The notes beneath the pieces are model-generated. The model saw nothing but the letters and a program-made list of their open reading frames with translations. It ran no database searches and had not been told where the DNA came from. A program made the translations under genes and the position numbers. A DNA stretch of 64,000 nt from Heterotrichella gracilis (Eukaryota > Sar > Xanthophyceae > Tribonematales > Xanthonemataceae): assembly GCA_032358255.1 (NCBI GenBank), contig JAULBX010016860.1:25711-89710 (forward strand). The letters run 5' to 3'. Shown piece by piece: positions 6,170-63,163 of this stretch; within the stretch, counting starts at the first letter, position 1, and every line of letters starts with the position of its first letter.

Positions 6170-9100
6170 ATGGTGAGTGGTGGTGCTGGTGGCTCTGCAA
6201 TTAAGTTCTCCCCATGGCCTGAGCATGCACGTTTTTGCATGTAATAGGTGCACGCATCTCCCCGACGTTATACCCAGAGCAGCAGTATTGGTTTGCACTC
6301 TGTGTGACCCCTGTTTATTCCAGGTAGCCTTGTGCCTTGCTCGTTGTCTACTGGGGTCAGGAAGGCACGTTCACCCACCAACATATGCATGCATTGCTGC
6401 GAGGCATGTGCTGACAATAAGGGCGTTTATCCCGGGGGCTGTCTGGGGACTGTCCGTAACCTTGTGGCAACTGTCCGACCTGCACGTTTATGCACGCCAC
6501 CTGCTGCTGCTCTGGGTCACCTTGTGCCCTATGTGGGTGGTGCTTGGTTCCAAGGGGATGAGAAGGAGACATGTGCATATGCATGCATTGTACCAAGGGT
6601 TACCCTTGCTGTGCATACACAATCTCTGCTTGTATTAGCTGCGGGTTTCCGTTTTCGCATCAACACCCTGCACCCCCTACGGCCCCCACCTATACACATG
6701 GTGTGCCGCGAGGTCCTTTTTCCTCCCGGGGGGGGCACCACGTTGCTGATGACCCTTGCGTGGTTACTACCTCGATCACCCCCTTCACATTCTCCTTTCC
6801 CACTCTTTTCAGAACCGCCTCAACCCCAAGCAGAAGGAGAAGGTGGTACAGTTCAGGGGGATCACAGGAGCAAGGTGAGCCGTGGGGGTGAAAGTCCTGG
6901 GTGGCCTACTGGAGGTTTTCTTTGTGAACGTTTGTGGCTGGCGGGTACCCTACTGTAGGGTTATTGTGAGGTTAAGGGTGCAGGTGCACTGCGGTGTGGG
7001 GGACCCTAGCGGAGGGTCGAATGTGGGGTGGGAAACACTTTGCTGGGGGTGGGTGGGTGTTGTGGAGGGGGGTGGGGGAGGCCATCGTGTGGGGAGAGGC
7101 TTGCGGGGGACCACACATGGCGACCTGCGTGTGCGGCATCACGGGACGAAGGACCCGCTGCATGCCATGTACTGCCTGGTAGTTGAGTGTGGACAGTTGT
7201 GTACATGCTTGCACACTCTGGCAGCGCGGTGCATGGCGCCATCACCCCTGACCATGCCGTACCGTACACTGATGTTGGTGGTACACCCTGTGGCAGCGAG
7301 AAGTCGGCCTTGGCATGCCTCAAGGGGGGCGGGTGGGGCATGGAGGCGGCCATCGAGTACTTCTACACAACGGGGGCGATGGCGGAGGGTGCTGGTGGGG
7401 GGGGCCCTCCGGTGGACCTGGCCGCAATCGAGACCCTGTACGAGCGGTATAAAGGTGGGTGAAATACATGATTAACTGGGGGTGTAATTGTGGGCGGCGG
7501 GGGGAGCTTGGTAGTTTTCGCGGCAACAGAATGCTTGGGCGTAATGCTGTCGGCGCATTTTACCATTGGGGTGGATGGATGGTGTCTGTCTGGAAGGTTT
7601 GGAGGTTGTTTGCTGCCAACTTTAAATCTTGGGGGCCCAATTTCAACATAATATTGTACAAGATTAATGCACTGTATTCGTCTTAATATGTAACAATCAA
7701 ATGGGCATAATTCTATCATAGGTGTACGTGCAAATGAGAAAAGATTGTGCAGTATGAAGTTTGTAATCGATTTTTTAGGGGCCGTAGAACAACGCAGCTG
7801 TTGGAAAAGGGATTGGTATTATCGAGACGTGGGGGATGGCTGGGGAACGGGGTGCAGGTGCGTGTGGATGTCACCCCCCAATCTCCCCCTCGCCCTCCTT
7901 CCCGTTTCCCAAAACAACTGGTTTCATGGTTACATTGTCGGTTGCATGTAGCATGACTGTAGACGTATGTAGCATGTATTTCGGGGATCCAGCTGGCTGC
8001 TACGGTCTGCTGCTTGTTTGAACTCCTGGGGGAGAATGCAAAGAGGCGCAGTCACATCATGCCCAGCATTGCCACCACTGCGGCATGCCCCCACAGCGCC
8101 CTCCACCCCCCTCCCCCACCTCCCCACCACTGCTGCGTCACGCACCCCCCCCTTGCAGATCCCGACCAGGACATGATCCGAGCGGATGGTGTGGGGCGGC
8201 TGTGCGAGGACCTGGGGGTAGACCCTGCGGATGTGGTCATGGTGGGCACACACAAACCCTACACCCTAAACCTTGGGGTGGTGCGCACCCATGGTGCACA
8301 TCCACTTAACCCCCAATCCGGACTCCTGGTGCTGGACACACCACCGCGCTAAAGCCTGCCCTAGATGAAGTGGTGCCTGCTGATGTGGTCCTGGTAGTCC
8401 CTCCCTCACCAGGGGTGCTGTCAATGCACCACACCCGCTCCCGCCATGCTTTGACACGTACATTGGGTCGGCGCTCTGTGCAGCACCCGGTGTCTGTCTT
8501 GGATGCATCCCCAGGGACTGTATGCAACCGGGCCTTCATTGCCAGATGCATACATTCCATGCTATAGTAGGGTCTGCCGCACCCACCACTTGGCACAAGT
8601 TCCACCCAAGGGTCTCTGCGCTTGGGTTGTGGGCCACAAACCCTTCTCTAGGTTTCCAAGGTTGCCAGGACCCACCTTTGCTAGCACCTCGATCTGCAAA
8701 CGCACGTCAGCACCACCAGCATGTCCACAAGTTGTTTGTTCGGCTGGATCATGCCACCAGCCCTGCCCTAGGGTTTCCTGCGCACCCCCCTTGCGCCTGC
8801 AGCTGGTCCTCAGCCACAGGCCCTCCCTGAACCCTAAACCCTCCCTAGGGTCTCAGTCGCCCCCCGTGCCTGCAGCTGGTCCTGAGCTACCACTTCAACG
8901 CCGCCACCATGTGCGAGTTCAGTAGAGACGAGTTTGTCAACGGGATGACAGCACTAGGGTGAGCAGATGTGTTGGTCGGCGATGGCTGGTGCTTCAAATG
9001 CGGGTGATCTGGGGTTGTACATGCCAGTATGGCTCCACAGGTTGAATCTGGGTGTCACCAAAGTGTGGCATGTGGTGACTGCGCCAGTCAAGCAAACATC

Positions 9101-10397
9101 CCACCCCCAGAGCATGCGCTTTTATATTATTAAATAAACTGCAGCTGTTTGAGTGCTCTGTTTGCAAACACATGCCAACCATCCTGGCTATTTCCCATCA
9201 TATGCCGGCTCCTGGCGCTTCCCAGCCCAACCACCTCCTGTAGGCGGGGTGCTGTAGTCATACTAGTTGCAGTTGTGTGGAATGAAGTTGTGTATCGCCC
9301 CTTCCCCCCCAGGTGCAACTCCCTTGCAGACGTCAAGAGCGCCCTGGCGGGCCTGAGGGCAGAGCTGGACGATCAAGGCAAATTCACGGAGATCTATAAC
9401 TATGCGTATGGCTTTGCTCGGGAGGTGCGTAGTGCCCTGGGACCTACACCCTGCCTCCGGAGCCCTTTGGGCTTGTAACTCTAAACCCAAGAACCTTACA
9501 TCCTGTCTCTGAAGCCGTGAGCCCATTGCAGTACAGTCTTGGGGATGGCTTTCAGTGAGAGGCGTGCCATTTTCTAAACCCTCAACTCCCACGTCCTGTA
9601 CCACTAGGCATATGGCGTTGCACGGAAGGGACATGCAACTTACAGCCGAAACATATAATAGCTGCATTATACACAGAAGCATGTGCCCCTGCGCTTACCC
9701 GGGGCCGCACCCCACCCCTTCCCACCCCGCAGAACGGCGCCAAGTGCGTGCAGCAGGACGTGGCCATCGCGCTGTGGCAGCTGCTGCTGGGCGGGCGCTG
9801 GGCGCTGGCGGCGGAGTGGTGCGCGTTCCTGGAGGCGCACCACAACCGGGCGGTGTCCAAGGACACATGGATGCAGCTGCTGGACTTTAGCAGGGTGAGG
9901 GCTTGGGTGTAGAGGCATCAAACCCTCGTAGCTTGGAACCCTGGAACCCTCTATGCGCTGAGATCGGTGCTGGTCTCCACCTTGGCACCGTCCTCCCTTG
10001 TAGCAGTTTCCTGTCAGGCATGCACCCTCCTTGTCCACTTTGGCAGGTTGTCGGTTTTGTATGCTCTGTGCAGGTTGAACCATGTTGGCAAAACCACGGG
10101 GCATTTCCCTGGCTGTCTGCATCACTCTTGCCCCTGATTTGTTCACATACCCCTATGTGCTTCCCGCCCGCCCGCTTGGCATTATCGCAAAAAGCTACTG
10201 CGCTGTTCTCCTCCCGACCCTGGCAGTGCAGAAGAATGACAATGTTGGCAAAATGCACCACAGCTGTGTTTTCCTGACCCCCCATCACCCCCATGGTATT
10301 GCAGCAAATACGGCCAGACTTCTCCAATTACGACAAAAATGGTGCCTGGCCCTACCTTATAGACGAGTTTGTGGACCACATGAACCCCCCAGAGTGA
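6170..10397 (+). CDS. DCN1-like protein (defective in cullin neddylation, DCUN1 domain)
   Basis: Eight coding exons: 6170-6172, 6813-6874, 7297-7454, 8159-8241, 8876-8958, 9313-9424, 9733-9894, 10305-10397. They total 756 nt, giving 251 residues, the usual size of DCN1-like proteins. The first coding exon is only ATG, directly followed by GTGAGT. The next exon begins NRLNPKQKEKVVQF, matching the family N-terminus (M-N-K-L...QK-KV-QF). Residues about 5-50 form the UBA-like region. The rest is the DCUN1/PONY domain, with EFSRDEFVNGM, QDVAIALWQLLLGGRWALAAEW, NRAVSKDTWMQLLDF and the C-terminal YLIDEFVDHMNPPE. Family members act as scaffold-type E3 factors that bind the E2 UBC12 and cullins and promote NEDD8 transfer, mainly in nucleus and cytosol. 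The start was chosen from the ATG/donor junction and homology to family N-termini. Confidence 0.93.
8211..8400 (+). repeat. Decayed copy of DCN1-like exon 4 donor end in the following intron
   Basis: The end of the exon around 8211-8241 (…gatgtggtcatg before GTGGGC) is echoed at about 8366-8393 (…gatgtggtcctg before GTAGTC), with flanking similarity. The second copy keeps a GT at the equivalent junction. The match is short and degenerate, so it is less certain than the other junction repeats. Confidence 0.5.
8766..8895 (+). repeat. Duplicated 3' splice site and exon start in DCN1-like gene
   Basis: A stretch running from ccctaggg through a C-rich tract to tgcagctggtcct occurs twice. One acceptor points to 8803, the other, 73 bp downstream, to the functional exon start at 8876. 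Only the downstream copy continues into the coding LVLSYHFNAAT. Use of the first acceptor would shift the frame, because 73 is not a multiple of three. Confidence 0.85.
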
Positions 10398-13706: not shown

Positions 13707-15473
13707 CCCCAACCCCTCGCCAGTCACAATTGCATTCCGGGTTGGGGACTGTGAGACCTGTAATGCCAGCAGACTTGCAGGCAATGGAATGAACAGTTTA
13801 CTTTTTTTTATCTTGGTGCTTTCGTTAGACCTGCGCATGGAAGCGCAGCCGTTGATAATGAAAGCTGGTGCGCCTCTGACCGGCTTTATCCCCACCAGTA
13901 TGGTGGCCATCCAAACATTAAAGTAGAGCCCCAGTACCTTTTAATCCCATTTATGCGTGAAGTCGCAGGGAATAAGCCCATCAGCGTCTCAGACTGCAAA
14001 GGGTTTCACCCAAGCCAACGCAAGGCAAATACCATTCTGCAGCAAGCAATATTTACCATATTTCGGCAAAATTTCAGGAGGGCTTCATGGTGTTACAATT
14101 TTCAATGCTGGCACTATCTAAACGGCCCGCACTGGTGGCAAAGCAGTCCCCTGCGCTGCCACAGGTGTAGAAAGTGCTGGCAGTGCAGTAGGGTCTAGCG
14201 CTGATGCGTTCTCAACATAGCGCATGGTCCTGTACTAGTGCTGCAGGGTTTGCAATTGTATCTGTTGCAATACCCGAGAGTAGCTGGGCCAGACCTGTTA
14301 CAACCCTAGGGGTGAGCAGTCGCATACCTAATCAAGGTGAGGGGTCACTTTGTCCCAAGGCGAGGACACGTGAGGACCACCCACCCGCCAGGTGGCCACA
14401 AGGTGGTGGCTCTCAAGAACCTTAGAGAATAAAGTACGCTTTGCCCAGACCTGTTCGGGTTGTGTGACCTGCCCATGCTTGTGCCACAAGTCGTGGCAAG
14501 TGCACAATATCTGGCGGGCCTTGTCGCAGCTTTTATAACAAAATTTGTCATGAGTAACTTATGAGTAACTCCTGCCACCTGCCAGCTGGATGCCCCCACG
14601 CACCGGGCGTGTGAGCACCGCAGCGGCACGGCTTTGTCCGCCCGCTTGCAGGCTTTGGGATCAGCGATGACTTGCAGTGATAGGGGCGAGGACGCTGCAG
14701 CAGTCCTGAGCCACTGCTAGCCGCCGCAAGCTCCCCGTGGGGCTGTCGGGCAAGGTGTGTGTGCCGGGGGTGGGCAGGCTGTGCAGGCGGCTGCTGGCTG
14801 CTGCCCACAACAGTACTGCCGTCCTAAACGGCAAAAACTGCAAAGTTGGTCGCGAAGTGATCACTAGATACCGCATACGTGTCGCCCTGGGATACCATGC
14901 CCATGCATGCATGTGCATGGTATCCCCTTTGACCAGCGCTTGCACGCTCACTTTCCCGCCCCATACTGTAAAACCCTTGCTGTACTGGTCCGGATAGGTC
15001 TCTATGTGCAGTCGCTTGGTTACCGTGGTGACGTTGCGACTAGTTCCGCATCACCACGTGTCCCCACCCCCTCGTACAGCGGTTTCGTATACGCAACGCC
15101 TCTGAAAGACTGCTTGCCTGGCACTGCCTGCTCAGCCCGCTCTTTTTCCACACCTGCAGTGCTGTGCACAATAACCCACCGCTACACCCACGCCCACACA
15201 CACACCCTTACCTTGTGAGAAACCCGGTTGCACCCACTTTCAAAGGTCAAGATGGCACCCAAACCCCATGCCTGGCCATGCTACCCAGCCCCACCAGTGT
15301 GTCACCCCTAGCGCCGCCGCCGCTCACTGTTGCCTGCACCCTGGGGCAGGGTTCTGGGGCCAGCCCACTGCTTGCACGTCGAAAACAGAAGGTCGAAAGC
15401 ACCTGGTGTGGGGGGGTCAGCCCACAGATGCTGTATCACCCACCTCACACCCTCACCCCGACTGCAGGCAGCC
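13707..15473. other. Intergenic region, augmin-like to mannanase gene
   Basis: No supported exon or RNA gene was found. Short GC-rich stretches near 14570-14820 look exon-like in composition, but every frame with plausible splice sites is interrupted or unrecognisable. The right end is C-rich and leads into the mannanase start. Confidence 0.45.
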
Positions 15474-30944: not shown

Positions 30945-33900
30945 TCACACGCGCACCAGGTAGTCTCCCGACTTGCATATTTTGCGCACCCACTTGTCCA
31001 CCTTGTAGTTTGACTTCTCCCACACCTTGAGGTACTGCACGCGCAGCCCGCTGGCGCTGTACATAGGTACCTGCAGGGGGGTGGGGGGTGGGGGGTGGGT
31101 GGCCAGGAGGATAAGGGCGGTATGTAGTGCAAGGGGACAATACACCCTCTGATCATAACGCATCCTCCAGGCGGGCTGGTGGCCCTTTCTGGAATTGGCA
31201 ACTACAAGCATCCGCACATGTGGTCCATACAACTACATAAGCCAACGTTGCCCTAGCAATTCTACCCACCACCTGCGCATATTGACCTGCACCAGGACGT
31301 GTGGCCTGGTCCGCAGCCTCGTATCAGGCGAGGTAGCTATGAACCATACACTCCGCCTCCCTCGACGATGCACACATACACACAGCACACACATCCTCCC
31401 CCCACACATACGCACATTGAACTGCATCTGTATGGGCGGCCTGCTCCACGTCTTCTTGTCCCGCGTGGTTGTGATGAGCGTGACGTCGCCAGCCAGCGAC
31501 GCCTCCTGGTTGCCCGGGAAGCGCTTGATCTTCCACACCACGGCCTTGCGCTTGGTATCGTACTTGGCCTTGCCTGGGGGATGGGCAGGGGGGTGCAAGG
31601 TGGGGAAAGCAGGAGAGAATGGCGGTGGTACCCACTTGCAAGAAGCAAACGCATTGCATGTCAACGTGTGCTGGGGGGTCCAAGCCCGCCTCCACACACC
31701 ACCTTCCTAGGATGGGCGGCGCAACATGCAGCGCGTGGGGAGTGGCTACCGGGATATGCAGCACAATTGTGCAGGACATCGGAAAGGTTTTGAGGGGCAT
31801 GTATTGCTTATAATGATTGCTGGGTATGCGGAGCCCCAGATAGATTTTGCAGGGCGTGCATGGTTTTGCCATAGATGCCTGGCAACCCCTCAATTCCCCC
31901 CTATGATTTCTGCACCCTTACCCAGGCTTGTCTGCATGTCTGCGCTTGCTGCGTTCTCCGGCACGGGTATGATGACCAGCACGTTGAGCGCATGCATCTT
32001 GCTGTTGAAGGTGCTCTTGATCTTGATGTTCACCTGGGGGGGCAAACTGGTGCTCAGGGTCTTGTATACGGCTGTCTGAAGTGCTGGCAGAGATGCTCAT
32101 GCAGGTGCTGCAGCGATAATGCAGCGTGCACTTTAATATGAACGCTTGGTTTGGAGAGGGCTGGCGTCACCCCAGCGGAACCCTGCCCTGCACCCGCCTA
32201 CAACCATTCTCCATCATGATGGGTGCAGTGTATCAAAATCACGCCCTCCATGCTCCCGGGCTGTCAACCTAACTAGGGTTTTGGACAAGGATTCACGCAA
32301 AATAACGTGCAGCTGTGTCCTATGTTTTGCACAGTGCTGGTGCCTAGGGTGGTGTCCACGAACCCCTCATCCCTACCAGCGTGCTGCAGTGCTACATCAT
32401 GATGGGGGCGGCCTAATTATTAGTATTATTATTATCCCATGCGGCCTTGGTCAGCAATGCCCCCTGTGCTGTCTGGACCCAGGTGCTCTCAATGAAATTC
32501 CTGCAATGAAAGGGTTTTCACATGCGCAGGGGCACTGCTCCCCTCTTACCTCCACCCGCGTGCGTCCGTGCTCGGTGATGATGGGTGCGATCTTGAAGGG
32601 CACGCTCACCCCCTCCGTGCTGCGGTACTTCATCAGCTCAAACTCGCCGTCTGGGGGCACAAAGGACACCACCTTCTCGGCGTTGAAGCGACCAAGGTTG
32701 ACGCACTGGTGGAAGGTCACGTCCTGCAGGGGGTGGGCGTGGGGGGAGGGGGGCTTCAGGATGTGCATGCACACTTGCATGCGTGTAGCACAGGGTTATG
32801 TCTATGCCATGCATTAAGAGCTTGGGGTTTCTACCCTGGGTGTTGGGGGTTCCAAGGCAGCAATGTTCCCGTTATGCAAAGGGAAGCAGGTTCAAGTGCA
32901 TTGCCCCAGACATGGGTATAATGCCCTTTAGCCCCCCATCTTGTTGTATCAGCACGGTCCCCACACCATGATGGCACAAGTGTCCACATTTCCTCGCCCA
33001 CCACCACACAATGCCCCCAACAATACCGCCAGTAAACACCACCAATGACACTTCTACAGGGTTCCCTTGCCAACCCTGCAAACACCCAAATCCTAACTCC
33101 CAGAGTCTGGGACCTAGACGCGCCTAGGACCCGCTCACCTCCACCTTGTCGTTCAGCCCAATCTTGACATCCGGCATGCCCGACAGGAATGCCTTCATGG
33201 CCACCCGCCCCACCACGTCGCTGCGCAGGGTGGTGCCCTTTGAGCTCAGCAGCAGGTTCACCTGGGGAAGGTGGTGGGGGAGTAGGGATTGAATGCGGGG
33301 ATGGGGATGGTACATGGGGTGGAGTGGGGTTGACGCGCAGGGACACCTGGCTTGCGGGGGCTTGAGAGAGAATGCGGCGGGTATCCATTAACCCTTTACT
33401 AATTAGCATTGTATGGCAGATAGCATAAGAAAGCATAAGCATACAGCCCCGCCTCGATTGCCGACATGACATGACCCATGGGTAGGGTTTTAGGGTTTAG
33501 GGTTTTACCTGCTCGATCACGTCCAAGAACACCTCGTTCTTCTTGTACTTGAGCCCCTCCTTACGCCAACCAACAGCACCAGTCACCTGCGCACGGCGTG
33601 CGGGCTAGAGTCAGGGAACACGGTACAGGTGTGCGCATAAGGCGGGGTGTGCAGGGTGTGCAGGGTGTGCAGGCAGGGTGTGCAGGCAGGCCCACACCAA
33701 GGCAGGCTTCAGGCATTGTGAGCGCATGTTTTGGGGTTTAGGGATTGTGGCCCCACCTGCAGCGTTGACGCCGCCGCCTCCTGCTCCCGCTTGAGCCTCG
33801 CCCGCTCCGTGATGTTGCCCTTCTGGAACACGTACGTCTTCAGGATGGCCGGGTCGCACACCTGGGTAGAGGTGAAAAAAAACAATCAGGCAATTTCAAC

Positions 33901-36785: not shown

Positions 36786-39700
36786 TCAATCCAGCTGATC
36801 AAACACCTCCCCTGGCCCAGAATCATGGCTTGTGCCCCCACTCAACGCACCCCCACCGCCACCCAGTGCACCGCCCCTGCCGCCCAAAGCACCACCGCCA
36901 CCCAGTGCGCCCCTGCTACGCAAAGCACCCCCTCCCAAGGCGCCACCACCACCACCCAAAGCACCACCGCGGTGGCCGCCCAACGCACCACCACCACCGG
37001 AAGGTGTTCCACCCTCTTTTCCACCCAGGGTAATGCCGCTCCCTTGCTTGACTGTCACGGGCGGAGCGAACACGGGGGTTTGGAGGGGCTCCTGCAACAC
37101 CAGTGCAGCAATTTGTAAACATAGCCAGCATTATATTGAGGAGAGAGAAAAGGCAATCCTTCTAAAGCACCCCCGATCTCAAGTTTTTTGTGCAAAGGTA
37201 AGATCACCAAGTAGTACATGACTCTGCTTTTGTCCATCCCTCCCCCCCTGTATCCACTATATCCACCAATATTGTGAACATGGGCTGACCTGGCGTTGCG
37301 TGATTCAGCTGCATTGACACCGCCAGCACAATGATGGAATAAGCAGTGCAAGGGCAGGGCTGGTTGGCACAAGGCATGTAGGACTGACTGCTAGTCTGGT
37401 TGTATCGCTGGAACCCATGTAAGTAATGAGTAATAAAATTAATGATTGTTCCTGTCACCACCGGCCTCCTGTTGCGCCAAAGGCGACCCCAGACCAATGC
37501 GTACGTTCACATGGATACATGTGTGCGCAAGGCTTGCCCCCACATCATACATATTCACCCCTTAGGTTCTCTACAGTTTATTTCTCCCCTGCAGCCACCC
37601 ACCTCCCTCTGGGCCGCCCGTGCCCCCGCTCCCCCTGGCAGCTCCCCCACGCCCTCCTGGGCTGCATTAGCAGTTGTGGCGTTCCTGGCAGCTTCCTCCT
37701 GGTTACAAATGAACACATAAATCCGTAATTTGTTTAGTACGCAAATGGCGTGAAACAGAGGGTAAAGACATTTAATCTAATCTAGCACTGTACAGAGATA
37801 AATTATGCGTTGCTTATGTTTGATGGTAAAAACACAGGCGGGTTACTGCATTTGTCCATGAGATGCACACCGTCCTCAAAGTACGGAATACAAATCACAG
37901 AGCTGAAGCGTGTTTAGCCATTCCAAACGTGCTAATGTTGCTGGGAATGACCTTCTCCTTGTTCGCAGCCCCGTGTACGCGTAATGCCCACTACCACTAC
38001 CACATGAACACAAAGCAGACAGGAGCGTCTCGCCCCCAGCGCACCTGCTGGAACTTCATCATCTTCTCAAGGTCCTCCTCGCTGGGGATGACCTTGCCCT
38101 CGTACTCAGGGATCATCACGGTGGTCTTGGGGCGGGGGGCGGTGACCACGGGGGGACCGTATGCCTCCGCCAGGGATTGCTGCAGGTGGGGGTTGGGACA
38201 AGTTGCAAACGCATCCATGGTTTCAACATCATCCTGCTATTATCGTGGTGTGTCAGGGTGCACAATTTTATTATGTTGGGACAATGCACCCTGTCACACT
38301 GTCATTTTCTTAATCCGCATAACTGGGGTTTGAACGTTACCATGTTGGGACAGGAAACCTGGTGCAGGATGCAAACAAGGCTTTTGACAGATCCTGCCAA
38401 GGTTGTTGCAAGCCTGAGAAATCAATTGGTTAAATTAGGGAGGCTGATGTGAAAAACATGCGGGTAGTAGAACAGGCAAGCTCATATGAAGAGCCCAGTG
38501 CTGCCTGTTGTTCACATAATTTCATATTAAAATGCCACGATTACCTGCAGGTCCGTCAGCCTCTTCTTCTTCTCCGCCTCCTTCTTTGCCTTGCGCTCGT
38601 TCTGCATCTGGCTGATGCGCCACATGTCCTCAAGGTTCTCAACAACAGGCACATCGGGGTTCTCCTGCGGGAAAGCAAGGGTATTGTTTTGCTTTGATGT
38701 CAAAGGGTGAATTCTGCAATATTTCAGTAGCAAAGATAATCTCACATAAAACGTATTTGCTGTTTTATTCATATTATACTTGGCGTATTTTGACACCTCA
38801 CGGTTGAAATTCTTCTCCCAACAAACAACACATATATGGATTTATTTTATTGCAAATGGCTACCTAATCTATTGTTGAACAACCACTTTAGTTAAGGGCA
38901 ATTCCTGGTCATTATTGGACATTATCTGTCTGGGAGTTTGTTATGCAATTGCTTTTGGTGTTCAGAAGTCCATTTGCTCATGGCAGGCCCTGCAAGGTGT
39001 ATGATACCTACCCGGATGAACTTCTCCTCATCCGTCTCCGGTTTCACCGGCTCATCATCCCACCCCTTGTCATCTCCATCAGCCATGAACTCAACCCTAG
39101 CCAGGGTCTCCCACAGGCTGTTGAAGTTGGGCACGGGAGCCAACTCGGGCGGGGGCCCAGCAGGGGCGGCCGCGGTGGGGGAGGAGGGGGGGTCAGTGAC
39201 CTGAAAGAATTGAAAATGGCCAGGTGGCAGATGCGTCATTTATTTGATATGCGATGAGATTGTGTGAGTGATGGGAAAATGCAACTACAGAATCTGTAAG
39301 TTCACAAATTGTTGGGTTTTCCTGGCGTGTCGAAGGTTGGTGAGAATGAGAATGTAATGCAATTCAGACGAACAGCAGAAAGTAAGATTACATTTCATTT
39401 CATTGGTTCCAGCGCCTGTCCAGTACGCTGGAACATATCAACATGCTTGCATGCGTATTGCGCAAGAAAAGGTCTAGCATACCTGCACAGAAAATGGGCA
39501 TCCCGGTAGCAGCACTTCTCCAGAATACAGCTCCAGGCGATAAAACCCTGCCTTGTCCACCATATACTCGCAAATGTATGTGCCATTGTGCTGCGGGGCA
39601 CATTTCACAGGGACCTCTCCCCCACCGAATCTGAGGGTTCCTGCCAAGGGGAACTGCTGCTCCAGCCCCTCCCCACTGCACTGGTTTCCATGTGCATCCC

Positions 39701-46403: not shown

Positions 46404-49400
46404 ATGACCAGCCCCGCCCCCAGCAAGACCGGCCTGGAGGCCCTTGGCAGCGAGGTTGAGGTGATCAAGACCGATGCCAACATCGTGTTCAAGGCCAAGA
46501 GGTGGAGGGAGGCATTCAAGATTTACACACTGGGCATACGGTGGGATGCGCATAGACACACTGGGCATATGGTGGGGACACAAACACAGTGCTGGCATCC
46601 CAACTCCCCAAATGTGGGGGCTTGCGCCTGGCTCCTAACATATTTTGGGGTTTGAAAAGGGCAAGTAGCAAAGCACCTGTATTTGTAGGCTGGCAATGTA
46701 TCCTTGTTATCCTGGATAATTGTGCTGATTTTGTTTAAATACCTGCAGTGCATCTTTTCAAGAACATAATTGCAGGTCGGGCCGTTTGCCCCCATTATGC
46801 AGTCGCAGTCATTTTGTGGTGCCTCAAGGTGTGTTGTCTTGTGGTCCCACAGGAAAGTGGTTGACTCAGGGGCCCTGTCCTTCACATGCGAAAAACCCTA
46901 CGAGGGGTGCCTGCCTGGGGGTTCCCAGGCCGCTGCTGTGGCAGGCGCCCTGTACAGCAACCGAGCGGCAGCGGCCAAGGAGCTGGGGCTCTACGAACAG
47001 GTGTGTATGGTTTAAGGGTTTAATTTGGGATTAAGAATATGACGATGGTCGACCATCTCACCGAAAACACGTGACCCCGCAATATAGGAAAATCGGGTTT
47101 GTCATGATCTTTCAGAATATGTAATTACTAACTTCGGTGAGGTGTCTAATGCGGCCAAATGACATGGATCACAAATTTGGTTAAAATGGCCCTTAGTCTC
47201 CCCAGTATGGCCTTAAACCCTACCACTGATACCCTTCATCTCAAACCCCGCTCCCCACCCGCAGATGCTGAGCGACGCCCACCACGCGCTGCGCACCTTC
47301 ACCACCCGCGGGGGCCCTGACGAGGGCAGGTACACGGCCAAGGCCTACCCACCAGACCGCCTCACCATCGTGCTCAGGGCGCTGCACAGAATGGCCACGG
47401 CGTTCGAGGTGCGCGCCACAAACTCTGAAACCCTAAACCTGAAGACAATGCAGCACATGGCGACGGCGTTCAAGGTGGGCGCCGCAAAATTTAAAATCAC
47501 CAAACTGTAAGGCACTGCAGCGGTTGGCCAGGGTGTTCCATGTGCGCACCACAAACCCTGAAGCCTAGGACTCAAGGCGATGCTGCGCATGACGACTGTG
47601 GTCGAGGTGCGCCCCACAAATCCTAACACCCTGAGGCGCTGCAGGGCATGGCTACTGCGTTCAAAGTGCGAGACGCAAACCCTCAAAAACCTGCACCCTA
47701 AGGCCCAGTGTCTCACCACACACCTTCCACACGAAACCCCAGAGAAAATCATGCTCACACCGTTACTGTGCTGCGTCCCATGGCATGGCCCTGGCTGCAT
47801 TGCATGGCTTGTTGCAACCAGCGCAATCCCTACCTCCAACAGTCGCCACCCTACATGGTGGCGGTTTTGGAGTTGCTCTAATACCATCCCCTTCATGCAC
47901 TGACACAGTAAGGTTAAAAACCAACCTAACGGTACACTACTGACCCGGCAACAAGCACAATACCCTCCCAATGCCCTCCCTTGTCAGAGCAGGGGCAACC
48001 CTCCCCAAGTCCACGCAGCCAACCCTATGAGACCCTAAACCCTACAACCTGGTCTTCACAACCATGAACCCCACACACTAGACCCCCCCCCCCCCCCCTT
48101 TGCAGCGCCTGGACAACTACCCCCAGGCCCTGCACTACACCACCCTACTAACCCTACTACATTTACAAAACCCTCCCCCCTTGCAGCGCCTGGGCAACTA
48201 CCCCCAGGCCCTGCACTACACCACCCTGCAAACCATTCTGGACGCTGTGCCTGTCAAGGAGGATGCTGACAAGCGCAAGAAGCACTCGGGTGACCTCCTG
48301 CTGGCGTTCTCCGGTGCTGACAAGGGGGGCAAAAAGCCTAAATCCGATGGGAAGTCTGAGGGGGGAGTGGCAGAAGGGGCGGAGACCAGCTGCGCGGCTG
48401 CCATCATCCGGTGCAGGTGGGGGTGCAGTGGGGACATGGGTGGGGGTGGGGGCGCGGTGCAGTGCCAACATCTCGTGCTGCCGGAGGATTCTGGGTGTCC
48501 AGGAATTGGTGTGGGACAATTTGTGGTGTCTGGATTGGAAGGGGGAACCAGAGGTGGCATCGATTTGCGTCAGGTAGTTGGGCCGCGCGCAGGATACCTA
48601 GCAGCAACGTTGCCTGTTGAATAGTGAGCCTGGCATACGCCGCGGCCACCAGGTTGTGCCAGCCAGAGTCTGCCTCTGGAGGTTCAACTGTGGTCAGGGG
48701 GGCAAGCACATGCAATTTACTCAGCCACAGCCACGGCCATTTGTCACACGCACCAGCACAGCCACACCACATTGAACAGCTGTGCACCGCGTTCTCACTG
48801 CCACTACCTGTTTGCCTTCACCTGTTCTAACAGACGCACGGGCCTGGGGACAGGCAGCATGGGCGTTGTATCTAGTCTCCAATCCAGTCATGCAAATACC
48901 CAGTGTCCATACTTGTACCCCGTTTTCACTTGTCCCTGGGATGCAGTGTGGAGCGCTGCGCCTCGATTGCCCACCCCCGTGAAGGGGCTGTTGGCAGATG
49001 CAGACACACAGCGGTGACATACCAGGTGAGCAAAACCCCGACAAAACCCTAGTGGTTGTCTGCGCCAGTTGCAAATTGAACCGTTTGCAATTCCTGCAAG
49101 CAGTGGTGTGCATCGCTGGGAGGTTGCCTGCCTGATTGACAGCTGGCGGCCAGGGGGGCTGTGGGCAGGTTCAGACCAACAGCAGTGATGTACAATATCT
49201 AAAAATCCTGGCAAACTCCCTGGCAAACCCCTTCTAAACCCTAGCCAGACTGCCCCATTGGCCTTCCTGCATTTGTACCCATGCAGTGTGGCTGTCAACC
49301 CTAGGGAACCCTAACATGCTGCTTGGCTGTCAACCCTATGGAACCCTGACATGCCTTCTTGCTGCCTGTGCAGAACCGCGTGTACATATTTGCCGGCAAG

Positions 49401-52400
49401 AAGAGCGAATCCACAATGGAGTCAACGGTGCGTGCGGCTTGACCCCAAGCTCCAAACCCTAGCCCTCAACCCTAGCCCATAAACAAGCCGGGCAAGTCCT
49501 GGTCAATCAAGCATTCCTCGATGGAGGCAACTGGGTGTGCGTGTGCGATCGCGTGCGATCTGTGTGCAACGCCAGGAGGACTTCTGATTATATTCAGTGC
49601 TCTTGGCAAAGCCTGCATCTTGACTGTGAAATGCTGCATGTTGCCTCAGCACCTGCCTGCTGTTGAGCATACCAGGCACAAGCCTGCTGTTGATCAGGAT
49701 GCGCACATCACACCCCTGTGACATTGGCCCCACCCTGTCGTGTGCACAGTAACAACCTCCTTAATTTATATAACTTAAAAAATGGTTTTTTATAATGAAA
49801 ATGTCTGTTTTAAATTTTGAGCTCATATTGCCCCCGACTTTGAGCAGATTGCCCCCCCACTTACCCACCATTTTGCCCCCCCCCTCTCCAGGACACGCTT
49901 ACTGTTGTTGATGTTGCCAAGCTTCAGCCAGACATGTACATTTGGGGGGCAAAATGCGCGCTAGGGGTTGGGGGGCGCACCGTGGCAAACAGACAAGGGT
50001 CCGCGCTCCCACCCCCTCTGCACATGTGCACCCTACAATCCCTGGGGATCCCTACATACATTTTGCAATTTTGAACCTAATCCAACATCCAATGCTCCCA
50101 CTGCCACCCTGTATGCACCGACATCAGCCAACCCCGCCCTTGTTGTAGCACATGCATTGGTGTTCATTATACGCCGTTCTTAAAAGACTCCCATCCCAGG
50201 TCTGCATTTGATGTCCATTTCCCTTTCCGTATGGACCACCCACCATCTGCCACCACCCACCGCAGGGACTGGCCCCCCGCCCGCTCCGGCCACACCTGTG
50301 TTGTCAACAAAGACGGGGCCATGTGGGTGTACGGCGGGGTCTTGTACATCCCCAAAAACCCTAAACTACCCGGCAAGAACTCGCCTCACGAGCCTGAAGA
50401 CCCTGCCCTCCTATGGAAACTCGACCTCCATTCCCTCCCCTTGGTGCAAACCCTAGCTAAGGTCTCTGGGGTGGCCAAGGGGGGCGTGTCAAAAAAGCCA
50501 ATTGCAGTTGGGTGGGAGGGGGTGCACAGCGTGGGGCCCGCCCCTCCAGACCGGCAGCGCCACTCCGCAGTGGTGTGGGGCAACACCATGATTGTGTTTG
50601 GTAAGATACGAGCCCCAAATCGCTGCAAGACCCGAGAGCAGGGTACCCCGAAACCTTGCACCCAGCAAAACCCTACTCTAAACCCCAAACCTTGAACTTT
50701 GCAGGGGGTTTTGAGTTTGGCAAAGGAGAGCTTGGGGACACCTGGGGCTTTGATTTCCAGACGTGCAAATGGAGGTTGATCATGGGATGCCCCGCCCAGT
50801 ACCGGCGCAAGTTCACAGATTATGGGAAATCGCCCAAACAGCCGGAAGCCCGCCAGGTGAGGCACTGATGCATTCCTGTCACCATGCACTCAACAATATG
50901 GTTTGCTTGTGGCTGGGGATGTGCGGCGATCACCTTGATGCCTTTTGGACTCGGTATCTTTTCGGTATCTTTTCTGAAAGACCCAATGCAGGCATGAAGC
51001 TTGTTTCGATCCTGACCACAGCCCTGTCGGTGCGCGGCATGCACTCCTGCCACACAGCCATGCATTGCTGGGCCCTGCATACCCCCGCCGGGGAGTGATA
51101 GGACTCTTTCCACCCACGTGAAGTGCAACGTCTGAAACCACAGTTTGCAAGTACGTGACTATGGGTCAATATGGCAGCCCCAGTTGGCGGCTGGGGTAAC
51201 CCCCACAGATCCCTCCTCCACAAACCCACATCCTCCAAACACACCCACAACCTCCACCCACACCCACACCCCCTCACCCCTCACCCCACCACAGGCACAC
51301 TGCTCATGGGTGGCTGGCGATTTCCTGTACATCTGGGGAGGATGTGGGTCCCCGATAAAAGGGGGAAATTTTGCCAGCGGCCACCGCACCGAGGACTACA
51401 CATTTGGCGACATGTGGCGCCTGAATTTGGCTCCTCCAAGGGGCAAAAAGGCTGCTTGGGAGGAGGTGCCCTGCTGGGGCAATGTGCCCGCCCCAAGATT
51501 TGAAGCCAGCTGTGCTGTGAGCAGTACCGGGATGGTGTACGTTGTAGGTGGGTGGGTGGGGGGTGAGGTCGCGTTTGTGGGACTGAGTATACTCGGCCAT
51601 GAATTTAAAAAACAGTGGAGTTCACAATGTGGATGCAACTCCCTTTTTCCCAAGTGGCAGCTCCACCTCAATCTCTCTTGACCCTGCCCTAGCCCACACC
51701 TCGACATGTTCTTGTTCAACACTGAACAGACGATACGAAGTTACAGAAGTATCTGGAAAATGGACCCTGCCCTCGCTGTTAAAAGCATAGGACATTTTGG
51801 TAACTAATAGAAATCTTCATTTATTCTTTATATTCCCAGGCGGCACCTCCACCTCCATCTGTGCTGACGTGGGCCTGGTCCACCTGTCAGACGTGTTTGA
51901 GTTCAACCCCACCACACGCACCTGGCGAGCGCTGCTGGGCCCACCACCACCCCCCTCCGCCCCCACCCCCCTCCTAGGTGCCCCCTCCCTCGGGGGGCGA
52001 TCATCTGCGGCTGCGGTGGTGTGCGGGGATGTGCTTTTGGTGGCGGGGGGTGGTGGGGCGGGGTTTGGTGCGCACACGGATGTGGTTGGGATCAGGTGGG
52101 TGGGTGGGGGGTGGGGGGGTGCAGGGGTTGGGGGTGAGGATTACATGTTACTGTTCAACAGAGTTTGTGCGTGTGTTTGGGAGGAAGGCTGGTTTAAAAG
52201 GTTGGAGGGTTTAGGGTTGGATGAGGGTTTGCATTCTTTGTTTCTTCATGGATTTTACTCGACCGCATGTACTGAACCATAGCAACTTTGGAAAATCCTC
52301 AACCATGAATCTCTATGCTGTTCAAACTCTGCACGCTGCAACTCTCAACATTTCCCTGCAGATTTCAGCGTCCATCCTCAAGACTCCCAGCCAATTAACC

Positions 52401-53836: not shown

Positions 53837-56800
53837 TCACCAGTCCCCCTCCATAAACCCCCCCTTGTGCGCCGCTGCCTTGCCCCTGCTGGCACGGCGG
53901 TCGCGTGTGCGAGCCTTGGAGTCGGCAGAGGCGGGCGACCTGCGGGGTTGGGGTAGGGTTGAGATTGGGGTTGGGAGTTAGGGTTAAGCAGGGTTTGCGC
54001 ATTGGAGTCGGCAGACCTGCGGGTGGGATGGTGTTAGAGAATGTGGCATTGTCATGGCGTAGGTTTTGTGGGTTGGTTTACCAATGGATTTGGGGAAGAG
54101 CTGGCTTCAGTAGGGCGAAGCATAGAAAGCGATGCCAGGCTGGCTACAAGGTGGCTGAACACATGTAAGCCCCCAACATCCCATGTTCACAACCCAGTAC
54201 ACAGCCACTCCTCCAGTGCACAAGGCCAACCCTACCCCCGCTGTCCTCACCTGTAGAGCCGCTTCTCTCTTGCGCTCAGCCTGTCCAGCGCCTCCCCTCG
54301 CGGCTCAAAACCAAACACCTGCGGCCAGGGGTGGGTCAGCAGCGATACCAAATAGCCGTCTATACATATGAGGTGCTGCAAGCTATGGTCATTGTTAGTT
54401 TAGTTCCAGCGGAGCAGCCCGGAAGGCGGCCACCCCTCCAGGATGTGCCATCAAACTCTAGGTTGTCTTGCCTTGCACCATGTGATGGCCCACCCGCAGT
54501 CATGCCCTAAGCCAAGCCTCGTCCAGACATGAGAGCTCCTGGCCAGGTCTAACCCCACCCCCCTCTTGTATGCTTGGCCGCAGGGCATGCAAGCGCACTG
54601 GTTCAGCTGCTACGGTGCCCACAAGTGCCATTTTGTATCCATGCACACGATGTACTCACACCAGAAAGGCAAGATGGCTGCCACATGTACAGCTTGCTTA
54701 CAATAGCACCCTCCCTGCATTCCATTCCACTACCCCCCCTCTGCAACCCCCCACCTGGTGCAGCAGCGGGTTGCACTGCAGGTGCTCCTGCAGTCCCGTG
54801 CCCAGCAGGCGCCTGAATGCCGCAAGCTGCACCGACGCGGGCAGGGTGTCGACCACTAGGGTGTCGCCGTGGCGCAGGCGCAGTTTGGTGGCGGGCACGC
54901 TGCCGTCCTGAAAAGAAGGACATAGAGGTTAAGGTTTGGCATAGGGTTTTGGCATGCGTGCAGTGCACAGGCACGGCTTGGTGGCGGGCACGCTGCCGTC
55001 CTGAAAAGAATGACATAGAGGTGAGGGTTTGGCATAGGGTTTTGGCGTGCGTGCGGCCCACAGGCGCAGCTGGGTGGCGGGCACGCTGCCGTCCTGGGGG
55101 TGAGGGGCAATGGCACAGGGTTTAGGGCTTGGCGTAGGGTTTTGGGATGAGGGGTTTCAGCAGGAAGTTGGGGATGCCAGGGCAAGGCTGAGGTCAAGGC
55201 GGCTAAGGGCGCACAGGGGATGATACTGTGAGGGGGTGGGAGGAGTTTGACAGGCATGAGGTCACTCCACACAAGACTCTATCTGTGCAGGTGACTGAAT
55301 TGTGGATTTCCCAGAATATTTTAATCGATAGGGCCTTTCAAAAATTCCATCGAATTTTTCGGATTGTCCCTTGATGAGAAAATTTATGGATTTGTTTTTT
55401 ATTTTACGGAATTTCATTTTGCAGAAAACCCCGATCCCCGCACCCCACCTCCATCACATTGCAGTATCCCCTGAAGGACGACCTCAGGCTGGCGCGCTCC
55501 CTCCTCGCCTTTCGTAGCCTGTCCCCCCTGTTCTTTGCCAGGTCACGCATGCGCGCCACCACGTCATCAAAGTGGGAGGTGGTGGAGGCAAGGGAGTCGA
55601 GGGAGGGAGAGGTGTCGGAGGCGGAGTCATCGGACTCGGCGCTGTCCTGTGGGGTGGGGGGGATTGGGGATTTTTCGTGGGGCTTGTGGAAAGAGGCAGG
55701 GTAGATGGTTGTTGCTGTGGGTTCTAAGGGTCTTTGGGATGGTTGAAGCGGCATCTGAAGACAAGGGATTCCCCTAGGGTGTTTGGGTGGTTGTATGGGG
55801 GTAGTGCGCACAAAACGTTCCCATGAACCCCCACAAAATGTCCCCCTAATCCCCGCAGCAAGTCAGTCACAAGGCGCCAGCTGTACGTTCAGAGAACCAC
55901 CCATTGTACCGATACACCACCGCCACCACCCCCACATCCCACCCACCTCTTCCTCCCCCGGCCCCGCCCCCACACACAGCAGCGCCGCCGCCTCCCCCGC
56001 CGCCAGCCTCACATCCACATTTGGGTCGTGTAGCCGCGCCGCCAGTGTTGCCATGTGGGTGTCCACGAATGCGGGGGGCAGGAGGGGCGGGGGGAGGGTG
56101 GACAGCAAGAGGGACCAGCCGCGCAGGGCGGTGGCTTGGACAGGGGGGTTGGCTGCAGGAGGGAGAGGTGGTGGGTAGCTGGGAGACGGTGGGGTTGGTA
56201 CGAAATACACATACGAGTATTTCTTCCATGATGCATGTATACCGGGGTCTCAGCGCGAACCACCCCAACCCCAACCAACCCACCCAGCACCTCACGCAAT
56301 ATGCATGCACACCAGGGTGCTTGTTCTTCAAGGGAAATTCTGCAAAGGCTTCTGACCTGTGCCCATGCATGCAGGCCAGCCCCCCCCACCCACCTGCCCC
56401 GAAGCCCCTCTCCAGTCGCCCCATGACCGCCAGCGCCTCCCCCCCCTCCCCAGCCGCAACAAAGGCAGCCACCGCAAGCGCATCCATGGCCGCCTCGCGC
56501 AGTGCGGGGGAGGAGTGGGGGCCAGCAGAGGCCTCAAGCGGGCGACGCATCTCGCCAAATATCCTGCGGGGTCACGAGGGCGTTGAATCACCCAGAATAG
56601 CGTGCCATGTACACAGCGTTTTTTTGACGATATTCTCTATGGGGCGGAAACAGTGCGTTCTTGGATTCCATGGCGTGTTCTTTGAACCACCCTGTTGGGA
56701 CAACAAGCTTTCTTCCAGGGTGTACACCAGTGCACATTCCGTCCCCAACATCCCCCACCCCCACCACCACCCGCACCTCTCCGCGTCCTCCCCCGCCCCC

Positions 56801-60608: not shown

Positions 60609-63163
60609 ATGATGACCCCGGAGCCCATCCTGGATGTGGTGCGAGGGCTGAGCACGGTGCGTGACCCTAGGCTAGGGTATTTTACCTTGGCTGGGGGTTT
60701 TGACCCAAGGGTAGGGTTCCGAGCCCTTGGCCTGGCATGGCGGCCTCACACTTGGGCATGGCTTGCACAAGGTTTGTCCCAGGTAGAGCAGTGGGTGCTG
60801 CAACCCCAACCGCACAAAATCACTGAACCAATCACAATCACCCACCCACGCACTTGTCGCAAACCCACTTATATTTTTACCATCAACAACCCACGTCGCT
60901 CACCCACTGCCCCCTACCCGGCCCAGGTTGCCTCCTTCGGCATTGTGGTGAACCAGCTGAAGAGCATGTGGGAGGACCTGTTCACCAGTGCATGCGAGCA
61001 CTGCAGGGGGGCGGGGAGGGTCATATGCCCACATGTGAGTCGAGCAAACCCTGGTGCAGCCTTGGCAAGATCCCTGATAAACCCTTGCATGTGGTAGGAG
61101 CTGCTCACGTTGGCATGCGAGCGCAGCAGCAGGGCTGGTAGGGTTATCTGCCTAGGAAAATCCTACTGAAACCCCGGCAATATCCTGCCCACACCCTCTA
61201 TGGCACTTGAGCCATATTATTGCATGTATTCTTGCATTTTATCCATTCTTTTCGTTTGTGCACTTTTTTCCTGCACAGTGGCTGGGTAAGAAAGATCATA
61301 GCTTTCGCTGTGTTTCATTATCCATCCCGTATGAAGGTGTAGCAAGGAGTCATGTGTTCCTGCCGGTGCAGTGCACGGCTACAAATAAACCTGCTCTGCT
61401 CTTCAAAGCGCTAAACAGCCTCTGCCTAGTTAATTGCCATCATCCAAGCATTGGCGACTTGGGAGTGTAATTTTCATGTATTCGCTCCCTTTGTCATTCA
61501 ACATGTGTGTGATCATTTATGTCTGCCTCCCCTCCCTTGCAGTGCGCGGGCACCAAGGATTTGCAAAGTGAGATCAGATTATAAGTTATATATACACATG
61601 TTTTATGTTTAATATTTGTAAATATTAACTCTGTGTATACTCTCTCCCTTGCAGTGCGCGGGCACCAAGGACCTGCGGCGTCGCCCCGCCCAAATGCGCC
61701 TGCGCGACCTGGACCTGGTGGACTCCCCGGGGGACCACTACGCGTGCATATACTGCGGGCCAACCTCGAAATACGACTTCAATTTTGACCAGCAGGTGCG
61801 CATTTGAGGCGATGGGGGTGCTGAGTGGTGATGGGCCAAAATCAGCACCATTTGGCTTCAGCTTGTCAATGAGGTTAAAAATAGCGGGAATTTGCACAGC
61901 AGGCCCACTTCTGTATTTTAGGAATGTCCTGGCGATATGTGCTTGCCTGGCTGTCCTGCACGCCGCCGGGTGTCCAAATCAACAAAAAGAAGGAAAAAGT
62001 CACCTTCCTATTCACAGACAAATCTAATGTGCCAAAACGCCACCAAACACCCTGGTCGCAGGACCGACATCCTCATCGATATAAGAAATTTATGAACCCC
62101 CCACATGCCTGGCATTTACACTAGTCCACATCCCTGCAGGACGACGAGCCCGAGGCATACCGCATCCTTGACAACCTGCGTGCGGCTGCCAGCGGCAAGC
62201 TTCGCCCCCACCGCATGCCCATGCTTGCGGGTGTGGTGCCATGCCCAGAGTGCCACGGGGACCCGGTGGTGCGCCGCCACACGCCAAACCTGGCAAAGGT
62301 GAGAGGCGGGACACTTTAGACCCTCGCCTTTTGCATAAGCACGGGGTTTGAAGTGGTTCTTTGGGTTCAGAGAGTTTAGGGTTTAGGGTCTAGGGTTTAG
62401 GGTTCTATCTAAACCCTAGAAAGAAGCATGCGCACAGGTTCTCTTTTCGCTGTTTGGCGGTGAATTCAGATTCTTTTCCCCATCCCATCCTGTTCTTCAG
62501 GTGGGCGCACTTACTGTTTACATCAAACTCTGAAGCGTACAAAGAGGGAATGCACTTGGGCCAGGGCCCTACACCACCATTCACCACCCACCACCCACCC
62601 ACCCTCGCATCCCCTCCCCTGCAGGTGCTCAACCTTGAGGACCCCCCTTGGTACGCCATCGCGCACCGCCAGGCGCACTACCACATGGGGCGGTCGCGCA
62701 GGCCCAACGGGAGGCAGCGCCTGTTCCTGGAGTATCCAAACAAGCCGCCGGTGCCACCTGAGGAGAAGCGGGAAACAACAAAGGTGAGATAGGAATGGCT
62801 TATTTCAAGGGTCAACACATACCTTGCTTTATTATTGACAGTTAAAACAAAAAATTGAACTGTGTCCAAGCCCAATGTCAGGCAACATGTTCCTGGAGAT
62901 CAGCTGGCACTGGACTCACGATACAAATTTATCTATTATGTTAAATTATCGTAATAAGGAAGAATAATAATAATTATTATTATTATGATAAAGGAAAATT
63001 ATGAATTTACACCTTACATCCCCAATCGCAGGCCGAGGACACGCGCGATGGCGGCTTTGCCATGTCCGCCAAGGACCAGCTCACCCTGGACGACTACATC
63101 CTGCCATACATAGACGAGGACGATGAGGAGGAGCCGTCGCCATTCGGGAAGCCAGCAGCCTAG
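60609..63163 (+). CDS. Protein with DnaJ-type zinc-finger (four CxxC pairs), function unknown
   Basis: Six exons: 60609-60656, 60927-61034, 61655-61795, 62140-62298, 62625-62783, 63032-63163; all phase 0, 747 nt, 248 residues. Cysteine pairs are C39EHC42 followed by RGAG, C50PHC53 followed by AG, C83IYC86 followed by G, and C134PEC137 followed by HG. This is the spacing logic of the DnaJ/Hsp40 cysteine-rich domain, which holds two zinc ions, but there is no J domain. After the zinc region comes EDPPWYAIAHRQAHYHMGRSRR, and the C-terminus is acidic (YIDEDDEEEPSPF). Plant proteins with a lone DnaJ zinc finger often act in plastid protein folding or photosystem assembly. No clear transit peptide is visible with the chosen ATG, and an acceptor-like gggcag lies right before it, so an upstream exon is possible. 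A specific function is not claimed. Confidence 0.75.
61533..61690 (+). repeat. Duplicated 3' splice site and exon start in DnaJ-zinc-finger gene
   Basis: The block tcccttgcagtgcgcggg and following caccaagga occurs twice, with exon starts at 61543 and 61655 (112 bp apart). The upstream copy runs tgcgcgggcaccaaggattt and meets a donor-like GTGAGA at 61568. It could therefore be spliced as a 25-nt microexon that would shift the frame. Confidence 0.9.
62380..62417. repeat. Telomere-like TTTAGGG array in intron
   Basis: The stretch gtttagggtttagggtctag, followed by further gtttaggg and then aaaccctag in inverted orientation, lies in intron 62299-62624. It is the densest of many TTTAGGG/CCCTAAA words in the window's introns. 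Confidence 0.85.

What the first reader, a model, noticed from the sequence alone, without database searches (positions are those of the whole stretch)
8159..61795. Introns repeatedly contain tandem copies of the adjacent exon end plus its splice site
At least five independent genes in this window show the same pattern: DCN1-like (8766-8895, 8211-8400), AP-2 mu (32182-32600), TPR-Kelch-MYND (47371-47700, 48083-48235), IFRD (53916-54025, 54876-55154) and DnaJ-zinc-finger (61533-61690). An exon boundary, with its GT or AG, is duplicated one to four times into the intron and decays outward. Both donor and acceptor sides are affected. This is not expected of random tandem repeats, because the repeat phase is centred on the splice junction. 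It suggests a genome-wide process in which local duplication across exon/intron borders builds introns and spare splice sites. Duplication of AGGT-containing exon segments is a known proposed route to intron gain; here the copies sit next to existing introns.
Basis: partly seen in the sequence, partly recalled or inferred. Interest (0 to 1): 0.88.

Follow-up and report, generated by a model that had tools for sequence, protein, structure and literature searches.

The report
Exon-edge copies inside neighbouring introns
In this stretch of what looks like green-algal DNA, about one intron in five carries a decayed copy of the edge of the neighbouring exon, most simply left by small local duplications that the cell can tolerate because splicing still uses the original site.

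Summary
In 71 modelled introns, 18 of 142 exon/intron junctions have a copy of themselves in their own intron that at most 4 of 1000 random introns match (0.7 expected; inverted orientation 1 of 142). They lie in 15 introns of 7 genes.

Best explanation: ordinary local direct (mostly tandem) duplications that straddle a junction. Selection removes duplications inside exons; straddling ones survive because the exon-proximal splice site keeps being used, so the intron grows and the second copy decays. A tandem duplication that puts exon sequence into an intron must straddle the junction, so a junction-centred phase needs no special mechanism.

A junction bias remains: 14 junction to 3 intron-only clusters, where 47-57% is expected (12 of 3000 rotations; binomial 0.003-0.03, or 0.10 under a harsher assumption). 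It is suggestive, not proven. Intron birth by AGGT duplication is not supported. Copied sites kept GT/AG in 13 of 18 assessed cases, roughly what neutral decay gives, though eight still score like real sites. No RNA data, relatives or other sequence of this genome were available.

The parts
8224..8243 (+). DCN1-like exon 3' end plus GT (donor at 8242), source
   Evidence: junction VVM|LVLSYHF lies in a gap-free part of the alignment to DCN1-like protein 1
8376..8395 (+). intronic copy of the above, GT kept but a weak site (2.6 bits)
8839..8890 (+). DCN1 acceptor region (exon starts 8876), source
8761..8817 (+). upstream copy of the DCN1 acceptor region, site score 14.3 against 14.4 for the real one
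9399..9425 (+). DCN1 exon end at donor 9425, source
9603..9629 (+). decayed copy of the DCN1 exon end, GT lost
31400..31477 (-). AP-2 mu exon 3' end (exon ends 31416), source
   Evidence: exon end corrected so that the protein reads [16 protein letters not shown]
31265..31342 (-). decayed intronic copy of the AP-2 mu exon end, GT changed to AT
32542..32589 (-). AP-2 mu exon 3' end and donor (exon ends 32550), source
32363..32410 (-). decayed copy 1, GT lost
32187..32226 (-). decayed copy 2
37940..37968 (-). intronic copy of MORN/filamin gene exon segment 38081-38109 (does not reach the junction)
46525..46545 (+). TPR-Kelch exon 1 end plus donor (46541), source
46556..46576 (+). 95% copy after a 10-nt filler; copied donor scores 9.0 against 6.8
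47378..47443 (+). TPR-Kelch exon 3 end, donor 47409 and intron start: unit 1 of the array
47444..47687 (+). four intronic copies of that unit (offsets 59-67 between neighbours), all with GT
48171..48239 (+). TPR-Kelch acceptor and exon 4 start (exon starts 48187), source
48090..48158 (+). 90% upstream copy of the acceptor and exon start, 81 nt away, in frame and open, site score 16.8 against 15.1
48984..49022 (+). Kelch exon (48947-49025) end, source
49155..49193 (+). decayed intronic copy of the Kelch exon end
51833..51883 (+). Kelch acceptor (exon starts 51840), source
51647..51697 (+). upstream copy, AG changed to AA
53928..53970 (-). IFRD last-exon acceptor region (exon starts 53939), source
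54005..54046 (-). gapped upstream copy with AG kept
54872..54964 (-). IFRD acceptor unit (exon starts 54907), unit 1 of the 93-bp array
54965..55149 (-). two upstream copies of that unit (89% and 78% to unit 1), both with AG
60964..61029 (+). DnaJ zinc-finger exon end (exon ends 61034; match stops 5 bases short), source
61087..61152 (+). intronic copy, 77% over 66 bp
61644..61676 (+). DnaJ zinc-finger acceptor and exon start (exon starts 61655), source
61532..61564 (+). copy with 28 of 28 identical bases, followed by a 79-nt AT-rich filler (22% GC); site score 11.8 against 9.9

Best explanation
These are remains of ordinary local direct duplications (units roughly 30-200 bp, mostly tandem, sometimes with a short filler) in the nuclear genome of an intron-rich, alga-like eukaryote. 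Duplications wholly inside exons are removed by selection. Duplications that straddle an exon/intron junction survive because the exon-proximal splice site keeps being used, so the second copy of the exon edge falls inside a longer intron and decays. The exon original is held by selection, so these pairs stay recognisable longer than intron-only pairs. Shown: the copies, their direct orientation, their excess over chance, and that proteins read through with the exon-proximal sites. Inferred: the duplication mechanism, the order of events and which site is used.
For: Direct orientation: 18 of 142 junctions against 1 of 142 inverted. Matches run through the junction, as tandem duplication requires: 14 of 16 (junction-anchored probes, so partly by construction) and, by my reading of the coordinates, 11 of 14 junction clusters of the unanchored scan. 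IFRD is a clean tandem array of period 93; TPR is a tandem array of period about 66. All four young donor/acceptor cases at 90% identity or more keep GT/AG; the five copies that lost it are at 68-81%; 13 of 18 intact is near the identity squared expected without constraint (my rough estimate). Of 30 duplication clusters only 3 are exon-only: the MORN coding repeat (41016), a C-rich repeat (36835) and a G-rich one (12173). DCN1, AP-2 mu and TPR-Kelch read through without stops using the exon-proximal sites. Of 12 alternative uses translated, 6 shift the frame, 4 keep the phase but meet a stop, and 2 (acceptor 48106, donor 47475) stay in frame and open.
Against: Intron-only duplications are fewer than the model predicts: 14 junction to 3 intron-only clusters, against a 47% junction share under rotation of the annotation (12 of 3000 rotations as extreme) and 50-57% in a neutral simulation with slower exon decay. 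Three young copies are separated from their sources by 10, 12 and 79 nt of filler, not pure tandem. In the TPR array the intron-derived part is not less conserved than the exon-derived part. Copying is not confined to edges: exon-interior probes gave 3 of 116 hits against 0.4 expected, and probes against the wrong-side neighbouring intron 3 of 112 against 0.4.
Confidence: 0.72

Rival explanations
1. A junction-directed process: breaks or slippage concentrate at exon/intron borders (for example at the GC step between exons and introns, or during co-transcriptional splicing), so introns grow from their ends by copying exon edges.
For: 14 of 17 intron-associated clusters are at junctions, 12 of 3000 rotations as extreme; 39 and 42 of 3000 at stricter thresholds. 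Exons are 64% GC and introns 52%. Intron-only clusters: 3 in 25.6 kb of intron, against 10 in 26.4 kb outside the models, some of them low-complexity or coding-like.
Against: A neutral model with detection bias expects 50-57%, leaving p 0.027 at 57% and 0.10 at an assumed 65%. A cluster was called junction if any of its pairs was, which favours that class. Gene models were revised after the duplications were seen. One window only.
Confidence: 0.15
2. End-joining repair with templated insertion (polymerase-theta type) copies nearby exon edge into breaks in the intron.
For: Filler of 10, 12 and 79 nt between young copies and their sources; offsets of 100-200 bp in many cases.
Against: Inverted copies, which snap-back templating should also give (recalled, from no call), are at chance level: 1 of 142 at <=4 of 1000, 7 of 142 at <=49 of 1000 against 7.1 expected. 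Most copies run through the junction, which dispersed templating does not require.
Confidence: 0.08
3. The copies are kept by selection as spare or regulated alternative splice sites or duplicate exons.
For: Eight copied sites score above the 10th percentile of real sites (donors 46572, 47475, 47542, 47607; acceptors 8803, 48106, 55093, 61543); 55000 is at it and 47666 below. The 81-nt TPR acceptor copy and the 66-nt TPR donor copy are in frame and open.
Against: 5 of 18 assessed copies lost GT or AG; 10 of 12 alternative uses shift frame or meet a stop; exon-derived parts are not better conserved in the TPR array.
Confidence: 0.04
4. Chance similarity, splice-signal similarity or assembly error.
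For: The weakest cases (GH5 intron 3, IFRD intron 0, MORN intron 10) rest on short or gapped matches.
Against: The null uses real introns with the same signals; 15 of 16 hits tested had 0 of 5000 nulls and one had 4. Nearly all copies are diverged, unlike an assembly repeat.
Confidence: 0.01

Closest known systems
Tandem duplication across an intron/exon boundary in the potato RdRp gene (PMC4974935; passages seen)
   Same: A local tandem duplication takes in the 3' part of an intron and the 5' part of the next exon, copying the acceptor site and pyrimidine tract.
   Different: In potato the event made a new intron. Here, judged by the proteins, the copy lies inside a longer old intron; donor and acceptor sides are both affected and 15 of 71 introns are involved.
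Intron gain by tandem duplication of an AGGT exon segment (Rogers model; described in PMC3443670, PMC2891723 and PMC4974935; passages seen)
   Same: Short tandem duplication of coding sequence near a splice motif; copied splice signals.
   Different: There the intron start equals the exon 2 start and the intron end equals the exon 1 end; tested here in register and not supported.
[quoted passage not shown] seen only as a citation and in the potato paper's passages; not held)
   Same: Small internal duplications in genes, which may include intron parts.
   Different: Could not be compared in detail; the paper is not in the library.
Introners (PMC9860276; start of abstract in search listings)
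   Same: A recurrent process that adds intron sequence.
   Different: Introners share one sequence across many introns; here each copy comes from its own junction, and ten bins of far offsets held no match at score >=20.

Membership tests
Junction-straddling local tandem duplication | Copy is in direct orientation and lies in the intron next to its source | tested here: met
   18 of 142 direct against 1 of 142 inverted; wrong-side neighbouring introns 3 of 112, 0.4 expected, one of them the short DnaJ exon 60927-61034 (earlier 67-intron set)
Junction-straddling local tandem duplication | Matched stretch runs through the splice junction | tested here: met
   14 of 16 matches; exceptions DnaJ exon 2 end and MORN intron 12. 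In the unanchored clusters 11 of 14; the third exception is Kelch 48984
Junction-straddling local tandem duplication | Head-to-tail copies without filler | tested here: inconclusive
   IFRD and TPR arrays yes; 46525, 48090 and 61532 have 10, 12 and 79 nt between copies
Junction-straddling local tandem duplication | A relative without the duplication at the orthologous intron | not testable with these tools
   no genome held; no relative found in viral contigs or genome contigs
Rogers AGGT intron gain | Intron start matches exon 2 start and intron end matches exon 1 end in register | tested here: not met
   67-intron set: start side 0.282 against null 0.283, 0 of 67 above the null 99th percentile; end side 0.310 against 0.282, 3 of 67 above it (0.7 expected); exact repeats 3.36 against 3.36
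Introner | One sequence shared by many introns | tested here: not met
   0 far-offset matches at score >=20 in the ten bins of 601 offsets scanned; other offsets not scanned
Templated-insertion end joining | Inverted as well as direct local copies | tested here: not met
   1 of 142 inverted at <=4 of 1000; 7 of 142 at <=49 of 1000 against 7.1 expected
Alternative splicing by duplicated sites | Transcripts that use the copied site | not testable with these tools
   no RNA data

The most novel reading that the evidence does not exclude
In this lineage introns grow from their ends by a duplication process that is drawn to exon/intron junctions, so that about a fifth of introns carry fossil exon edges with spare splice sites; the junction itself would be a mutational hot spot.
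Probability: 0.15. Interest if true: 0.82.

Novelty: new variant of a known kind. Interest (0 to 1): 0.5.

Why it matters
Where intron sequence comes from is an open question. Here 15 of 71 introns keep a readable trace of one source: copies of their own exon edges. It gives a natural system for watching how splicing chooses between near-identical sites tens of bases apart, and a concrete genome-wide test of whether junctions attract duplications. If the excess over the neutral model vanishes genome-wide, it is a tidy case of selection and detection shaping an apparently targeted pattern.

Tried and rejected
Relatives: AP-2 mu in viral contigs and genome contigs, DCN1 in viral contigs; no confirmed relative. 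Own genome: none held. No Rfam match at gathering score and no tRNA in the window. Organism: not identified; 'green alga' is my inference from gene content, splice signals and plant-type telomere-like motifs, and was not tested.

Rejected: AGGT intron birth; shared introner sequence, in the offsets scanned; inverted templating. Telomere-like motifs as the cause: AAACCCT/AGGGTTT occurs 70 times against about 10 expected and is denser in affected introns (26 tracts in 5.6 kb against 25 in 18.3 kb), but the duplications themselves multiply it, and presence is 7 of 13 against 18 of 54 introns (67-intron set); I do not claim a link.

My counts changed as models improved. With 67 introns it was 16 of 134 junctions and 13 junction to 1 intron-only cluster. 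Separating the 47934 match from 48090 made it 13 to 2, and treating TPR and Kelch as one gene 13 to 4. Adding Kelch exons missed by the second gene-finder run moved 48984 to junction, giving 14 to 3. The three intron-only clusters are 47934 (AC-rich, weak), 49280 (clean 35-bp tandem) and 57207 (CA-rich). HSPs of which either copy was 90% or more two letters were dropped before the cluster counts: 8 of 60. A cluster was called junction if any of its pairs was; rotation used the same rule, the simulation did not. Of the 10 clusters outside the models, 22677, 22841 and 28073 are low-complexity or coding-like.

Slips: one search returned trivial self-matches for 10 of 16 junctions and was redone. 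One search used a length-biased filter that dropped matches 48090, 54872 and 60964; its counts are not used. One search stopped with a script error before its last part, redone. In one search the AP-2 31413 row and the IFRD copy at 54015 are off by one or two bases and are not used. One search had three Kelch exon ends off by one, put right. In some searches the AP-2 exon end was taken as 31406 instead of 31416. That all 71 introns are GT-AG is partly by construction, because the models were fitted to those sites. The simulation took its periods from the observed junction cases and assumed mutation rates.

Paper searches that showed no report of this pattern: (open-licence PMC library, listings only); this does not show that it is unpublished. 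One search looked for telomere-like repeats in algal introns; none of the 20 listed papers held the term 'interstitial telomeric'.
Full report
What was checked. The window is 64,000 bases at 53.9% G+C without N. No host genome is held. I wrote a small gene finder and compared its models with known families: DCN1-like (E 1.7e-66 to DCN1-like protein 1, the junction VVM|LVLSYHF lying in a gap-free stretch), AP-2 mu (E 2.3e-105), Kelch, IFRD, MORN/filamin and ParA-type ATPase above Pfam's cut-offs, DnaJ zinc finger and glycosyl hydrolase 5 below them. The final set is 71 introns, all GT-AG (partly by construction), 25.6 kb, median 330 bp, in 10 models; 132 of 142 junctions are in models with some homology support.

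The observation. An unanchored self-scan (offsets 20-620, ungapped) found 60 local direct matches at score >=15 against 0-5 in each of ten control bins at far offsets, and 29 against 0 at score >=20. Then each junction (60 exon bases plus 10-14 intron bases) was aligned with its own intron and with 1000 random pieces of other genes' introns: 18 of 142 reach <=4 of 1000 (0.7 expected), 17 of them with none; inverted, 1 of 142. With 5000 nulls, 15 of the 16 hits of the earlier set had none and one had 4. The hits lie in 15 introns of 7 genes. So the pattern is real and wider than reported.

Anatomy. Donor side: TPR-Kelch exon 3 end with GTGCGC is followed by four intronic copies, each 71-75% like the exon unit and 60-68% like one another, so star-like and not decaying outward. 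TPR-Kelch exon 1 has a 21-bp copy at 95% after a 10-nt filler. AP-2 mu, DCN1, Kelch, DnaJ and MORN exons have older copies, several without GT. Acceptor side: IFRD has three units of 93 bp, 89% then 78% (outward decay); TPR-Kelch a 90% copy 81 nt upstream; DnaJ a copy identical over 28 bp, 112 nt upstream, followed by a 79-nt stretch of 22% G+C. GT or AG survives in 13 of 18 copies that could be assessed: 6 of 10 donors and 7 of 8 acceptors, the GH5 acceptor being weak. Eight copied sites score above the 10th percentile of real sites (for example 16.8 against 15.1 for TPR, 11.8 against 9.9 for DnaJ); intronic GT and AG have medians of -1.3 and -3.3.

How it most likely works. A local direct duplication that straddles a junction leaves [exon edge, site, intron bit] twice. 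If the exon-proximal site continues to be used, the protein is unchanged and the second copy is intron. Geometry alone then makes such matches run through the junction. Selection removes duplications inside exons, and the exon original decays slowly, so these pairs outlast intron-only pairs. DCN1, AP-2 mu and TPR-Kelch read cleanly with the exon-proximal sites; of 12 alternative uses, 6 shift the frame, 4 meet a stop and 2 stay open. Which site is used is inference: no transcript was available.

Is there more than that? Of 30 duplication clusters, 14 are junction, 3 intron-only, 3 exon and 10 outside the models. Rotating the annotation gives means of 6.8 junction and 7.6 intron-only; the junction share was matched in 12 of 3000 rotations, the junction number in 6, the low intron-only number in 87. 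At thresholds 18 and 20 the counts are 11 to 2 and 9 to 1, and the share was matched in 39 and 42 of 3000. Rotation does not model selection in exons or slow exon decay. A simulation that does gives an expected share of 0.50-0.57; 14 of 17 then has binomial p 0.0064 to 0.027, and 0.10 at an assumed 0.65. The excess is therefore suggestive only, rests on one window, and was measured after the pattern was noticed and the models revised. Exon-interior probes gave 3 of 116 hits and wrong-side neighbouring introns 3 of 112, each against 0.4 expected, so copying is not strictly confined to edges.

Compared with what is known. Tandem duplication as a source of introns is established in print (PMC3443670 and PMC2891723, passages), mostly as AGGT duplication inside exons. 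That signature is not supported here, apart from a slight excess on one side (3 of 67 above the null 99th percentile, 0.7 expected). The nearest case is the potato RdRp gene, where a tandem duplication crosses an intron/exon boundary (PMC4974935, passages). What differs here is the outcome (a longer old intron with a fossil exon edge), the frequency (15 of 71 introns) and the two-sidedness. I saw no report of this in the listings of six searches of the open-licence library, which is not proof of novelty.

Verdict. Observation confirmed and extended; interpretation partly supported. The likely cause is ordinary duplication filtered by selection; a junction-directed process remains possible.

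Noticed in passing
window-wide, mostly introns (e.g. 33483, 58283, 62374, 62391): Plant-type telomere-like heptamer AAACCCT/AGGGTTT occurs 70 times against about 10 expected from dinucleotides; 43 in introns (1.8 per kb), 6 in exons (0.5 per kb), 21 elsewhere, with higher density near intron ends.
   Followed up: partly
61565-61643: 79-nt AT-rich stretch (22% GC) with an inverted repeat of about 20 nt, between an identical copy of the DnaJ acceptor and the real one; no other full copy in the window.
   Followed up: partly
23878-27163: ParA/MinD-type ATPase gene (AAA_31, E 4.7e-20) split by several introns: a bacterial-type family in an intron-rich nuclear setting.
   Followed up: no
49280-49354: Clean intron-only tandem duplication of 35 bp just upstream of the Kelch acceptor at 49374, the best counter-example to a junction-only process.
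   Followed up: partly
15468-19900 and 22016-22920: Glycosyl-hydrolase-5-like gene (below Pfam's cut-off) followed by Cys-rich and Lys-Pro-rich coding-like stretches, possibly a secreted enzyme with small Cys-rich domains.
   Followed up: no
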